A stretch of DNA of 21,862 bases, taken from a virus. The notes under the pieces were generated by a model. The model was not told the origin of the DNA, ran no database searches, and worked only from the letters and a program-made list of their open reading frames with translations. Of this stretch, positions 11,353 to 16,550 are shown in pieces. Each line of letters opens with the position of its first letter. Position 1 is the first letter of the stretch. Where the stretch lies: the IMG/VR virus record IMGVR_UViG_3300009093_000130, positions 1 through 21,862 of that record, one strand, 5' to 3'. The position numbers and the translations under genes were made by a program.

Positions 11353-12207
11353 ATGGATACATTTTTATCCTATGCTATTCCTCTATGTGCCGCCCTCGCT
11401 GGTTTGTCATCGTTTTTCGACGCGTGGTCAAAAATCAGCGAACGACCTGTATTCGAGGGACGCCCCTGGATTAGAACCGCATTCCTCGCCAAAACATGGT
11501 TTAAGCTCACATACTTTCTCACTTTAGCGGCATTGTCATTTTTGTTGGGTAAATGCAAATCCGACATAGCGGAAACTAAATCAAATGGCGAAATCGCGAG
11601 GAGAGAAGCCGCGCATACAAAACATGAGGACAGCATCCAAACTGAGTATAAAAAAGACATACGTTCAAATAATGATAGCAATATTCATACATTTACAAAA
11701 TCGCTCCAGGAATACCATCTCTCGTATGACAGCGGCCAAAAGCGAGTCTATAACAAAATGGATTCATTGGCACGAGAAAATCCAGGGTATTCTATTTCCG
11801 CCTATTCCCGACAAGGGTCGATTAATACCTTAACCGACTCCTTGGAGTTTCCAGGCCTTGAAGTGAATACCGGCAACTGCCCGGTCATTCTGAATTTTAA
11901 AGTTTATGTTGGCCAGATTCTTAATGGCAAATTGTTTTGTTCAGATTCCCATACGGGCCGCCATAATTACACGATGGCCCAGGGAGTTAGTTCAAGAAGT
12001 CCATTATCCTGTCACTATACCGTTCTCCCTTCAAAAGTGTATTTCCTCTATATCGGCTCATACTCAAATAGGAAGAAGTCAATTATAAATCCTATTGATG
12101 AAATCCTAGAATGGACATTGAACGATAATTCCGTCGGTCTGCCAGCCAATCCAGACTATAAAGACTCCATTGAAAATGCAATGAAAAGAGACCTACATTT
12201 GAAATAA
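11353..12207 (+). CDS. Membrane-anchored protein of unknown function (accessory gene)
   Basis: I do not recognise this 284-aa protein. Two hydrophobic segments lie near the N-terminus, about residues 4-23 (FLSYAIPLCAALAGLSS) and 48-68 (FKLTYFLTLAALSFLLG), separated by a short basic loop (RPVFEGRPWIRTAFLAK). A polar, probably coiled-coil region follows (about 70-140, with ETKSNGEIARREAAHTKHED). A strand-rich domain (about 170-250) with several cysteines, tyrosines and glycines comes next, then an acidic/basic tail. It reads opposite to its neighbours, is more AT-rich than them, and its stop directly abuts the SNF2 helicase stop. It looks like accessory cargo that could act at the host membrane, for instance in superinfection exclusion or host interaction. 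This is inference from topology and context. Confidence 0.75.
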   Translation: MDTFLSYAIPLCAALAGLSSFFDAWSKISERPVFEGRPWIRTAFLAKTWFKLTYFLTLAALSFLLGKCKSDIAETKSNGEIARREAAHTKHEDSIQTEYKKDIRSNNDSNIHTFTKSLQEYHLSYDSGQKRVYNKMDSLARENPGYSISAYSRQGSINTLTDSLEFPGLEVNTGNCPVILNFKVYVGQILNGKLFCSDSHTGRHNYTMAQGVSSRSPLSCHYTVLPSKVYFLYIGSYSNRKKSIINPIDEILEWTLNDNSVGLPANPDYKDSIENAMKRDLHLK

Positions 12208-13611
12208 TCATGCAACTTTATATTTTTGAAACAAAGGACGCAAAGCGACTAGCAACCCTTCCTGCCCTGCGTCTTTCTCACTCAGCCGTTTCATTACCAT
12301 CTCGTCTATTGTACCTCTTGCTATAAGGTGGTGTATGACCACAATCTCCGTTTGACCCTGCCGGTAGAGACGGGCGTTGGCTTGCTGATAAAGCTCCAGA
12401 GACCATGTAGGCCCGAACCATACCACGATATGCCCGCCCGCTTGCAGGTTGAGCCCGTGGCCTGCACTCGCCGGATGTAAAAGGAATAGTTTGATCTTTC
12501 CTTCATTCCAATCCTGTATATCTTTTTCGCTCTTTAGTTCCCGAGGCGCGTATTTGGCAAAGGCTGTTTTGATTCTGTCGAGGTCATGCCTGAAAGAATA
12601 AAACACCAAAACAGGCTCCCCGTCCGCTCGGTCGAGGATCTCCCCTAACTCGTCTATTTTTTCGTCGTGGACAACGTGGGCGCGCTTTTCTTCATCGTAT
12701 ACCGCTCCATTGGCATATTGCAAGAGTTTTCCCGCAAGAGTCGCCGCACTTACTGCCGTGATCTCGCCCGCGTCTGCCAGGGCTAAAACTTGCTCACGTT
12801 CGAATTTCTGGTATGCCTTTGCCGCGTCGGGGGGCAGTGCTATATCTACGGTTTGGTATTGGCAACCGGGGAGTGTTAAATAATCCTCCGTCTTCATCGA
12901 TACGCATATATCCCCGATCTTCTCGTAAATCTCCATTTCGTAAATGTCTGCCCCGAGTAGGCCTCCGGTGTCGTCCTTCTTTACGTTGTACTCATAGACG
13001 ACGTGGCCACTACGGCGGCCGGGGGTCAGATATTTGTCCCGATATGCGCCCAAGGTTTTACCCAACCGTTCGCCCTGGTCCAGTAGATACATTTGGGGCC
13101 ATATGTCGGGCAGACCATTGGGTCGGGGTGTACCCGTCAACCCAACAACACGCCGAACGAGCGGGCGCACCATGCGAAGCATTTTAAACCTTCGAGACTT
13201 CGCATTTTTATAGCTGGAAAGCTCGTCCAGCACCAGCATATCGAATTTGCCGAAACCTTGCCCGAGATAACCAACAAGCCACGCCAGATTATCCCGCCCG
13301 ATAACGTATATCTCTGCCTTTTGTCGTAGCGCCTCGATACGTTGCCGTTCGGTCCCCATTACCTTTGCTATGCGTAGGTGTTTCAGGTGATCCCATTTGC
13401 GCGCCTCGGTTGTCCAAGTGTTTTCCGCTACGCGCTTAGGTGCGACTACTAATACTTTCTCTACTTCCAACTCTTCGTAAATAAGGCGGTTTACCGCTGT
13501 CAGAGTGGCGACGGTCTTGCCAAGGCCCATTTGCATAAACAGACCCGCCGCAGGGTTTCGGATTATATGATCCTCGGCGAACCTCTGATAACTATGTGGT
13601 ACGTATAACAC
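12208..13611 (-). CDS. SNF2-family DNA helicase/translocase
   Basis: This 467-aa protein is a superfamily 2 ATPase of SNF2 type, likely a DNA translocase in phage replication or recombination. Visible motifs are SYQRFAED (Q-like, residues 7-14), MGLGKT (motif I, 28-33), VVAPKR (Ia, 55-60), VLDELSSYKN (motif II, DELS rather than DEAH, 127-136), GLTGTPRPNG (motif III, 157-166), and QQANARLYRQGQ (motif VI, 409-420). The size is the compact phage form, without extra chromatin-type domains. The start is GTG at 13611, with 20 bp overlap with the VRR-NUC gene. SNF2 plus VRR-NUC is a frequent pairing in phages whose replication is based on a family A polymerase. It is the last gene of the replication operon. 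Confidence 0.92.
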   Translation of the reverse strand: MLYVPHSYQRFAEDHIIRNPAAGLFMQMGLGKTVATLTAVNRLIYEELEVEKVLVVAPKRVAENTWTTEARKWDHLKHLRIAKVMGTERQRIEALRQKAEIYVIGRDNLAWLVGYLGQGFGKFDMLVLDELSSYKNAKSRRFKMLRMVRPLVRRVVGLTGTPRPNGLPDIWPQMYLLDQGERLGKTLGAYRDKYLTPGRRSGHVVYEYNVKKDDTGGLLGADIYEMEIYEKIGDICVSMKTEDYLTLPGCQYQTVDIALPPDAAKAYQKFEREQVLALADAGEITAVSAATLAGKLLQYANGAVYDEEKRAHVVHDEKIDELGEILDRADGEPVLVFYSFRHDLDRIKTAFAKYAPRELKSEKDIQDWNEGKIKLFLLHPASAGHGLNLQAGGHIVVWFGPTWSLELYQQANARLYRQGQTEIVVIHHLIARGTIDEMVMKRLSEKDAGQEGLLVALRPLFQKYKVA

Positions 13612-13879
13612 TCAAAAATTCGTTTAATGTTGTTTCGGAATCAATTACCAGGACTGAGAAACCAAGCCGACATAGTAGCTCGTGTACGACGCGTTGCCGG
13701 GGTGACGGCGATTTGCCAGTACTTTTCAGTTCAATGAACCAAATGCGACCACCGGGCATCAGGACCATGCGGTCGGGCAATCCAGTGAACGACGGCGAGA
13801 TTATTTTTATCGCTATGCCCCCCAATCGCTTGACTACTTCCCGCAGTTTCCGCTCGAAATATTTTTCACTTGTTTTCAT
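13592..13879 (-). CDS. VRR-NUC domain nuclease
   Basis: This 95-aa protein is a stand-alone VRR-NUC nuclease (PF08774), a member of the PD-(D/E)XK superfamily. Near the N-terminus is KYFERKLREVVKRLGG; the catalytic core is GLPDRMVLMPGG (Asp36) followed by IWFIELKSTGKSPSPRQ (Glu50, Lys52, Gln62). Such small phage enzymes cut branched or flapped DNA and usually pair with SNF2 helicases. I chose ATG 13879. A GTG at 13942 would add 21 residues encoded within the repeat cluster, with basic low-complexity content unlike the family. It overlaps the SNF2 gene by 20 bp. Confidence 0.9.
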   Translation of the reverse strand: MKTSEKYFERKLREVVKRLGGIAIKIISPSFTGLPDRMVLMPGGRIWFIELKSTGKSPSPRQRVVHELLCRLGFSVLVIDSETTLNEFLSVIRTT

Positions 13880-13897
13880 GGGTCGTTTTTTGATTTT

Positions 13898-14106
13898 GTA
13901 ACCATGTAACCACTGTAACCACTTTTTCTTACGCGGGTACACGCATTAGGCGGGTTAGGCGTGTCACATGCTCCCATTATCTGCCTAATTACCTTTTTAT
14001 TAGTTCCATAGAAAAATGGTTACAATGGTTACAAATCGTTCAAACCCTTTACTGTCTTGCGTTTGAGGCGTAACCATTTTTGGTTACAAATCGTTACAAT
14101 GGTTAC
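13898..14106. repeat. Iteron-like repeat cluster TGGTTAC/GTAACCA, candidate replication origin or regulatory site
   Basis: Eight perfect 7-bp copies occur in about 210 bp. GTAACCA is at 13898, 13906, 13915 and 14070; TGGTTAC is at 14017, 14026, 14081 and 14100; a degenerate TCGTTAC is at 14091. Neighbouring copies are 8-10 bp apart, about one helical turn. GTAACCA-TTTT-TGGTTAC (14070-14087) is a perfect inverted repeat. A perfect 15-bp direct repeat, TGGTTACAAATCGTT, is at 14026-14040 and 14081-14095; another, GTTACAATGGTTACA, is at 14019-14033 and 14093-14107. The cluster fills the only sizeable gap in the replication operon, just downstream of the primase-helicase gene. This is typical of a replicator or protein-binding array. 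Confidence 0.7.
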
Positions 14107-14132
14107 ACCTTTTTCGACCGCAAGCCGTCCGC

Positions 14133-16550
14133 TTAAACCCTACGGTACCATTTCTGGACGCCATAGTTTTTGAACCTGCGGGCCGCGTCCATACGTTCCC
14201 AACCGGGCATATTCCGCAAAATGCCGTGTATGTCTTTTGTATTGTAGGGGGTCATTTCCCCAGGTCGCCGACCGAACAGCTCGCACCAGATTTCCCCCGC
14301 GCATACGGTCGCCCGCTGTTTTGTACCAACCTCCTGTAGATCGCCGCCTATGAGGTATCCCCGGCGCTGGTCTATGTCCCAGTTCTCCCACGACTCCGGC
14401 AATAGCATGTCCAGAAACTCGGCAATCTGCCCTGTACGCTCGTCCTTCTCGGTATGGTCGGCCTGGATCGCGTTGGCCTCGGCTTCAAGGTCTGCGGATA
14501 GGTGCAAGGCTTCCCCATTTCGAAATAGGTGGACAGCTTCGGCCCATATCTGCCCTACCTCCGCTTCGGTCAGGTCGTCGAAAATGTCCTTTGCCGGGGG
14601 GCCGACGTAGACAGACACCGGCCAGAACTTGCGGTTGCCGTTGGCGTCGTTTCGCAGAAATTCGCCGTCGTTGGTGGTCCCGACGAAAACACACTGCCGC
14701 GGGTAGTCCATCACCTTTTTGCCGTAGGCCGCACGAAAGCGGTCTACCGTCTTACTAATAAAGTGTTTTACCGTCCCTACCTCGGCTTTCTTCAATCCCG
14801 CCAACTCGCCCATTTCAATTATCCACGCCCCCTGCAATTGCTCGAATGCCTCCTTCCCTTCTACTGTGCTAAACGTGTCGGAGAACCATTCCCGCCCGAG
14901 CCGTTGGATGATCGTGGACTTACCGACGCCTTGCTGCCCGACCAGTACCGGGGCGTAGTCGAATTTGATGCCGGGGACGAATACGCGCGCGACGGCTGCC
15001 GTGAGGAGTTTACGGGTTACGGCTCGGGTATATGGGCTGTCCTCCGCTCCCAGGTAATCGATAAACACTCGGTCTGCCCGAGCGGTACCGTCCCAGTTAA
15101 GCCCCCGCAGGTAATCGCGGACGGGGTGAACTTTGTATTTTTCGAACACATGCGCCAGGGCGGTATCCTGTTTTGTCAAATTGAGCGGGAGGCCGTACAG
15201 CTTTTCTAACCGGTGCGCGAGGTTTCCCCCATCGCGGTCGATAACGTGCCGCCCGCTCTTGATCGACCGCCAGGGCAACGAGCGCGTAATGATCTCCCTT
15301 TGCGCAAACTCGTCAAAGGCAAATGCCTGTTTTAGCTTCGGGTCGTTCTCGATAATCAGGATGATATTTCCGAGCGTGGAAAGTGTGTTGCCTTTCTTGT
15401 CCTTTTCGAGATTGGCTAACCATTCATCCGCCCCCGGCATATCTTCTTTCCCGCTGTCCTCTTCATCCTCTGCCGCAGGATCTTCAAAATCCGTTTGCGC
15501 CTGTTCCAACCGTTCACGGCTCAGGAGTAGGCTAACTTCTTTATCCCGGCGCGCGAAGTTTTCCATTGCCAGGTATGACGGCCTACGGTTGATCGGCGTA
15601 TCCGCTGTACAGTTCTCGTCCTGCAAGCCGAACTTATGAAGGCGAACCAGGTCAAAGGCATTGCATAGCTTGCCGCTTGCCGGGTCAGTACCGTGGTGAC
15701 TATACGCGTATTTATCCTCGTAAACAATAAGACCGCCTGACGTACTGCCTCCAGTGAAGGTGTAGCGGTCTTCCTGATCGGTCTGCTCGTATTCGTCCTT
15801 TAGAAACTCGGCAATTGCGTCTTCTATCCCGTACGTCCGGCAGAACGCTCCGACGATGCCCGGTTTCTCCCACGGGTCGCCTTGCTTCTTTGCACCTACC
15901 CGTATTTTATCAGTTTGACGGGAGCTAATCGGCCATTCGCTTACGTCGTTCCAATTGCGATAGGTGGCTAGGCACTCTTCAGCTTTCAACGGCTCACCGT
16001 CCTGATATTGGAAAACGTATTCCCCGTCCTTAGCAGTTGATGGCCAATACATCAACCGCGTCGGCTCAAACGTCGTGTCATCGAAACAATCGATATTCAG
16101 GTTGTCGGCTACGCGGCGCGCTACGGCTTCATACTGGTCAGCGGAAACAGGCTTATCCAGCGGAATCAGCAGACGAAACCGGGGCGTTTCGGCGCTATGC
16201 TTATGGGTGCTATATAATGCTGCAGCATTTCCGTACAGCAGGGTGAAGTCGTCCCACACAGTGGTACCGCCGTGGTCAATATCCAGTGTGATAAGTTGCC
16301 GCTCCTGCACACTGCCGACCTTTCGCCGACCACCCGAGAGGTAGCCGCCGACAAATCCACCAATGTCCTTTATCTCAGCCTGGCGTTCTTTCTTAGCGGC
16401 CACATACTCGGCGTATGTCTCTGCGGTACGGTGGGTGACGGATATTTTACCCAGTAGGATAGACCACGACACGGTTTTATTTTTCCAGGCTGTTTCTTTT
16501 CGGCTCTTTCCAGTGGCTATATTAAACTTAAAATCGTGCTGTAGGTCCAT
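14133..16550 (-). CDS. Primase-helicase, VapE (virulence-associated E) family
   Basis: This 805-aa protein joins a primase-polymerase-like domain to a superfamily 3-like helicase. The N-terminal part has ITLDIDHGG (Asp90, Asp92), STHKHSAETPRFRLLIPLD (about 114-132) and FEPTRLMYWPS (161-171), which fit an archaeo-eukaryotic-type primase domain. An acidic linker follows (about 354-375). The C-terminal VapE domain (PF05272) has VLVGQQGVGKST (Walker A, 535-546), WIIEMGEL (Walker B-like, 576-583), VGTVKHFISK, VFVGTTN (sensor, 621-627) and NRKFWPV (639-645, likely arginine finger). The C-terminal 50 residues look like a winged helix. The start ATG shares a base with the stop of the upstream gene (TAATG). 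It probably opens and primes the phage origin. Confidence 0.93.
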   Translation of the reverse strand: MDLQHDFKFNIATGKSRKETAWKNKTVSWSILLGKISVTHRTAETYAEYVAAKKERQAEIKDIGGFVGGYLSGGRRKVGSVQERQLITLDIDHGGTTVWDDFTLLYGNAAALYSTHKHSAETPRFRLLIPLDKPVSADQYEAVARRVADNLNIDCFDDTTFEPTRLMYWPSTAKDGEYVFQYQDGEPLKAEECLATYRNWNDVSEWPISSRQTDKIRVGAKKQGDPWEKPGIVGAFCRTYGIEDAIAEFLKDEYEQTDQEDRYTFTGGSTSGGLIVYEDKYAYSHHGTDPASGKLCNAFDLVRLHKFGLQDENCTADTPINRRPSYLAMENFARRDKEVSLLLSRERLEQAQTDFEDPAAEDEEDSGKEDMPGADEWLANLEKDKKGNTLSTLGNIILIIENDPKLKQAFAFDEFAQREIITRSLPWRSIKSGRHVIDRDGGNLAHRLEKLYGLPLNLTKQDTALAHVFEKYKVHPVRDYLRGLNWDGTARADRVFIDYLGAEDSPYTRAVTRKLLTAAVARVFVPGIKFDYAPVLVGQQGVGKSTIIQRLGREWFSDTFSTVEGKEAFEQLQGAWIIEMGELAGLKKAEVGTVKHFISKTVDRFRAAYGKKVMDYPRQCVFVGTTNDGEFLRNDANGNRKFWPVSVYVGPPAKDIFDDLTEAEVGQIWAEAVHLFRNGEALHLSADLEAEANAIQADHTEKDERTGQIAEFLDMLLPESWENWDIDQRRGYLIGGDLQEVGTKQRATVCAGEIWCELFGRRPGEMTPYNTKDIHGILRNMPGWERMDAARRFKNYGVQKWYRRV

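What the first reader, a model, noticed from the sequence alone, without database searches (positions are those of the whole stretch)
13898..14107. Iteron-like array beside the primase-helicase gene
Eight exact copies of a 7-mer (TGGTTAC or its complement) plus one degenerate copy lie in a gap of the replication operon, spaced about one helical turn within groups. There is a perfect inverted repeat (14070-14087) and two 15-bp direct repeats. Left and right groups point in opposite directions. Together with the adjacent primase-helicase, this looks like the phage origin of replication or the operator of a replication regulator. A less exciting reading is slippage-type repeat expansion in a non-coding spacer.
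Basis: partly seen in the sequence, partly recalled or inferred. Interest (0 to 1): 0.68.

Follow-up and report, generated by a model that had tools for sequence, protein, structure and literature searches.

The report
Phage replication origin with private address
The repeats are very probably the start site for copying this phage's DNA, and over a hundred related phages carry the same layout at the same place but spell the repeated word differently, in step with the tail end of the protein thought to read it.

Summary
The array is real: eight exact TGGTTAC/GTAACCA copies and one degenerate copy fall in the 253-bp gap between vapE (primase-helicase) and the VRR-NUC gene, with one copy elsewhere in the window. 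It is best explained as the phage's replication origin, read by the C-terminal winged helix of VapE.

The main evidence is comparative. Of 150 VapE loci with a gap at this spot, 107 carry a significant repeat array there, against 1 of 150 control segments. The repeated word differs between phages, but site order, orientation and 8-9-bp spacing recur. Two arms face each other across about 100 bp, which hold an AT-rich stretch and, in 37 of 83, a fixed TTAGG...CCTAA dyad.

In C. difficile phages 98-99% identical nearby, all nine iterons change together, along with only the last ~23 residues of VapE. Three wing alleles match three iteron words in 22 of 22 loci.

Searching viral contigs with the iteron pair alone found arrays directly downstream of VapE, DUF927 and NrS-1-type primase-helicase genes.

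This layout is known from SaPI/PICI satellites. The window is a new member, in a tailed phage. No binding or replication was tested.

The parts
13898..13921 (-). Outer iteron arm next to VRR-NUC: three TGTAACCA copies (13897-13904, 13905-13912, 13914-13921), spacing 8 and 9 bp
14017..14033 (+). Inner facing arm: two TGGTTACA copies 9 bp apart, facing the outer arm across ~95 bp
   Evidence: recurrent pair in relatives
14070..14107 (.). VapE-proximal group: inverted copy 14070-14076, forward copies 14081-14087 and 14100-14106, degenerate copy 14091-14098
13986..14016 (.). AT-rich stretch (6 G/C in 31) beside the inner arm: candidate unwinding element
   Evidence: sequence; in 83 relatives the 30 bp at this place average 14% GC
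13945..13989 (.). Dyad ATTAGGC (13945-13951), TTAGGC (13955-13960) ... GCCTAAT (13983-13989): element that stays constant while iterons change
   Evidence: TAGGN..NCCTA in 37 of 83 inter-arm regions, 4.7 expected; 8-mers. In the window it does not fold better than shuffles (z 0.1)
14133..16550 (-). VapE-like primase-helicase, predicted initiator
   Evidence: PF05272 E 2.6e-80; PHROG 256 DNA helicase; PDB 7pds profile match E 1.2e-122
14199..14315 (-). VapE residues 746-784: helix-turn-helix of the C-terminal winged helix
   Evidence: AF2 model, pLDDT ~86-93: E748-750 H751-758 H768-780
14136..14198 (-). VapE residues 785-805: beta-hairpin wing, inferred iteron-specificity segment
   Evidence: AF2 strands 784-793 and 797-804; changes with iterons
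13592..13879 (-). VRR-NUC nuclease gene, far border of the origin
   Evidence: PHROG 93 endonuclease; conserved neighbour

Best explanation
The gap 13880-14132 is the phage's replication origin. VapE, a fused primase and hexameric-type helicase, is inferred to bind the TGTAACCA iterons through its C-terminal winged helix, with the wing (residues 785-805) setting which word is read. Binding to the two arms that face each other is inferred to load helicase rings on the ~95 bp between them and open the AT-rich stretch. VapE would then unwind and prime, and the SSB and family-A polymerase of the same operon would copy. Shown here: the array, its recurrence at this position, its shared geometry, its change of sequence between phages, and its co-variation with the wing. 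Inferred: binding, melting, loading, and the role of the dyad.
For: (1) 8 of 9 copies lie in 210 bp. (2) Of 171 VapE loci, 150 have a gap of 100 b or more; in 107 the top 7-mer exceeds all 60 shuffles, against 1 of 150 for equal-length segments inside vapE. (3) Geometry is shared while letters differ: same-orientation spacing peaks at 9 bp (124 pairs), then 12 and 8; many loci show the order ++ -- ++ (about 100 bp) --. (4) Inter-arm DNA is 27% GC, and 12-15% beside the inner arm. (5) C. difficile phages L037 and L039: 776/776 aligned residues identical before the wing, 9 of 23 different in it, all nine iterons changed from TGTTACC to TGTCTAC. L039 vs L043: 98.5% identical over 5.3 kb upstream and 99.7% over 2.7 kb downstream, but 64.5% in the last 25 codons and 69% in the first 105 b of the gap. 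Wing and iteron match 1:1 in 22 of 22 loci. (6) Partial Mantel: wing p=0.002, HTH p=0.89; among homologues under 55% identical the wing is the best predictor of the word. (7) Scanning viral contigs with the iteron pair alone finds arrays directly downstream of VapE, DUF927, Cch-HTH and NrS-1-like genes. (8) SaPI Rep is reported to read a downstream iteron origin with its C-terminal domain (PMC7581432).
Against: No binding, melting or replication data exist. Wing and iterons are adjacent in DNA, so linkage alone could give the 22/22 match. The Mantel and nearest-neighbour effects are small (partial r 0.076; 25% against 10%), and segment 200-480 also reaches p=0.012. Per-residue mutual information did not single out the wing and is confounded by ancestry. 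43 of 150 gapped relatives fail the exact 7-mer test and 21 have little or no gap, several without a visible array anywhere in the fetched DNA. There is no GC-skew switch in the window, uninformative because genes run one way. The window is a fragment.
Confidence: 0.86

Rival explanations
1. The array is an operator: a phage regulator binds the repeats to control transcription of the VRR-NUC and SNF2-helicase genes.
For: Repeats lie directly upstream of VRR-NUC; closely spaced opposed sites also occur in operators (for the spacing).
Against: No promoter- or terminator-like site in 13600-14400. Large spaced arms with an AT-rich middle are unusual for an operator. Array words change with the VapE wing. 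In L031, L027 and L081 the array has moved downstream, away from VRR-NUC.
Confidence: 0.06
2. The array is an origin, but the reader is a different phage or host protein, with VapE loaded later.
For: Binding by VapE is not shown; adjacency alone could link wing and array.
Against: In L039 vs L043 nothing else within the 8.4 kb compared differs like the wing and gap. The wing predicts the word across distant homologues. The pattern-only search finds arrays downstream of initiator helicases of several families.
Confidence: 0.06
3. The repeats are neutral slippage or expansion in a spacer.
For: Short repeats in non-coding DNA can arise this way; copy number varies among relatives.
Against: Copies occur in both orientations with conserved positions; all nine change together between near-identical phages; 107 of 150 against 1 of 150 in controls.
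Confidence: 0.02

Closest known systems
SaPI/PICI replication module (Rep or Pri-Rep helicase followed by ori)
   Same: Initiator helicase with primase, origin directly downstream, short iterons, two iteron sets flanking an AT-rich region (PMC6092414, PMC7581432); recognition assigned to the C-terminal domain in SaPIs.
   Different: The window carries a large terminase and a tail sheath, so it is a tailed phage and not a satellite; it has its own family-A polymerase and SSB; the fixed TTAGG..CCTAA dyad was not found described.
PDB 7pds, 'Similar to D. nodosus vapE' (six chains)
   Same: Only PDB homologue found by sequence, covering helicase and C-terminal region (profile E 1.2e-122).
   Different: 477 residues, lacking the N-terminal primase part; no cognate origin could be examined here.
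PLE RepA_N initiator and origin of Vibrio cholerae satellites
   Same: Initiator DNA-binding domain and iterons co-vary and are exchanged as a module (PMC8263062).
   Different: Different initiator family; the varying DNA-binding domain is N-terminal; iterons ~30 bp.
SCCmec Cch2 initiator helicase
   Same: Binds direct repeats downstream of its gene with its C-terminal domain (PMC7581432).
   Different: Different helicase family, three 5-nt iterons, element replication not shown in that paper.

Membership tests
SaPI/PICI-type rep-ori module | Initiator helicase gene, alone or fused to a primase | tested here: met
   PF05272 helicase core; primase PHROGs over the N-terminal half
SaPI/PICI-type rep-ori module | Origin directly downstream of the initiator gene | tested here: met
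   Array begins 26 b after the vapE stop
SaPI/PICI-type rep-ori module | Two iteron sets flanking an AT-rich region | tested here: met
   Arms 13898-13921 and 14017-14107 around 13986-14016; family-wide
SaPI/PICI-type rep-ori module | C-terminal domain of the initiator recognises the iterons | tested here: inconclusive
   Co-variation only
SaPI/PICI-type rep-ori module | rep-ori drives autonomous replication | not testable with these tools
   needs a plasmid test
PICI element (satellite) | No own complete capsid, tail and packaging genes; depends on a helper phage | tested here: not met
   terminase large subunit and tail sheath in the window
Lambda O-type origin | Iterons inside the initiator gene | tested here: not met
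   array lies after the vapE stop; only in L017 and L095 does it overlap the 3' end
Transcriptional operator | Promoter at the sites | tested here: not met
   0 sigma-70-like sites found, 1.0 expected in shuffles; other promoter types not covered

The most novel reading that the evidence does not exclude
VapE phages across Bacillota and Bacteroidota share one fixed origin layout with an interchangeable address: the ~20-residue wing and the adjoining iterons form a compact cassette that is replaced as a unit, giving each phage a private replication specificity, perhaps to avoid cross-replication or origin-directed attack by competitors.
Probability: 0.45. Interest if true: 0.66.

Novelty: new member of a known kind. 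Interest (0 to 1): 0.5.

Why it matters
It gives a rule for locating the replication origin in a very large set of phages (1,049 records of 'phages' hold a VapE relative) without experiments. It also supplies natural near-isogenic sets in which a short protein segment and its DNA target changed together, so initiator specificity can be tested directly.

Tried and rejected
Single-sequence scans with the window's VapE found no relatives; an alignment query did. Per-residue mutual information pointed to helix-turn-helix positions as much as to the wing and is confounded by ancestry, so no residue code is claimed. A hairpin at the dyad: mean z -1.2 over 83 loci but 0.1 in the window, so a folded structure is not claimed for the window. 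GC skew gave no signal. No Rfam match or tRNA. No paper on origins of VapE phages was found in the library searched; subscription papers, including the SaPI originals cited by PMC7581432, were not readable.

Full report
Observation. The repeats are at the stated coordinates and are not chance: 9 TGGTTAC in the window against 2.4 expected, 8 of them in 210 b. Spacing within groups is mostly 8-9 bp, not a helical turn. The gap lies between vapE (14133-16550, minus strand) and VRR-NUC, inside an operon with DNA polymerase A, an Enc34-type SSB, an exonuclease-like DUF2800 protein and an SNF2 helicase. The window is an IMG/VR virus record, a linear fragment.

Recurrence. VapE relatives in 'phages' number 1,049 records. 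Ten annotated regions, 80 viral and 80 bacterial loci and the window make 171 loci. 150 have a gap of at least 100 b. In 107 the commonest 7-mer exceeds every one of 60 shuffles; in equal-length segments inside vapE this happens once. A few of the 107 may be AT-rich false positives (for example L104).

Layout. The word varies, mostly TGT plus four letters, but the order and spacing recur. The DNA between facing arms averages 27% GC, lowest beside the inner arm. A TTAGG...CCTAA dyad recurs there, 37 of 83 against 4.7 expected. In four complete phage genomes the array is the place where the word clusters. Longer words are nearly confined to it (TGTCAACA 7 of 8 in LWP01, TGTTGCATCA 7 of 7 in StauST398-2, GGTAACG 7 of 9 in Fontainebleau); GTAAACG in phage F4 has 11 copies in the array and 16 scattered.

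Specificity. C. difficile phages form a natural experiment. VapE is identical or nearly so up to residue 784, then differs in the last 23 residues exactly when the iterons differ, with sharp borders: 98.5% identity upstream, 64.5% in the last 25 codons, 99.7% from VRR-NUC on (L039 vs L043). Staphylococcal phages show the same pairing of C-terminal sequence and word. Physical linkage could produce the pairing, but not the matched change of nine sites. Statistics over diverse loci favour the wing, with small effects. The AF2 model (mean pLDDT 90.8) places these residues in a beta-hairpin after a helix-turn-helix.

Independent check. 32 have at least five copies in 400 b; several are coding repeats. 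Arrays lie just downstream of VapE-like genes in L308, L327, L358, L369 and, by PHROG match, L351; of DUF927 genes in L311 and L368; of a Cch-HTH fragment in L333; and of an NrS-1-like primase gene in L313. About ten are one family, mostly marine, without a recognised gene nearby.

Placement. PMC7581432 states that SaPI Rep reads a downstream iteron origin with its C-terminal domain, and PMC6092414 that E. coli PICI origins always have two iteron sets around an AT-rich region and that the module replicates a plasmid. The window meets the layout features but is a phage, not a satellite. What the searched literature did not contain is the family-wide fixed layout in VapE phages and the narrow wing-plus-iteron exchange.

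Noticed in passing
L302 3429-3532, L306 7220-7323, L314, L325, L326, L331, L332, L340, L350, L363, L365, L371, L377: A recurrent array of TGGTTACA pairs exactly 94 b apart, in what looks like one family of mostly marine viral contigs, with no recognised replication gene beside it in the loci read.
   Followed up: partly
L031 6431-6703, L027 5290-5471, L081 7522-7705: VapE abuts VRR-NUC with no gap, and a GTGAACA array lies about 2 kb or more downstream: the origin seems to have moved.
   Followed up: partly
L006, L008, L044, L047, L051-L054, L065, L071, L078, L085, L113, L162: VapE relatives with almost no gap and no visible array in the fetched DNA; their origin is unknown.
   Followed up: no
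window 11353-12207 (+): A 284-aa open frame on the opposite strand to the replication operon, no Pfam match, between the SNF2 helicase and the packaging genes; lower GC (0.43).
   Followed up: no
L364, L305, L316, L320, L361, L300, L307: Long open frames with collagen-like Gly-Tyr-Thr/Ser repeats whose DNA contains many TGGTTACA words, a trap for iteron searches by pattern.
   Followed up: partly
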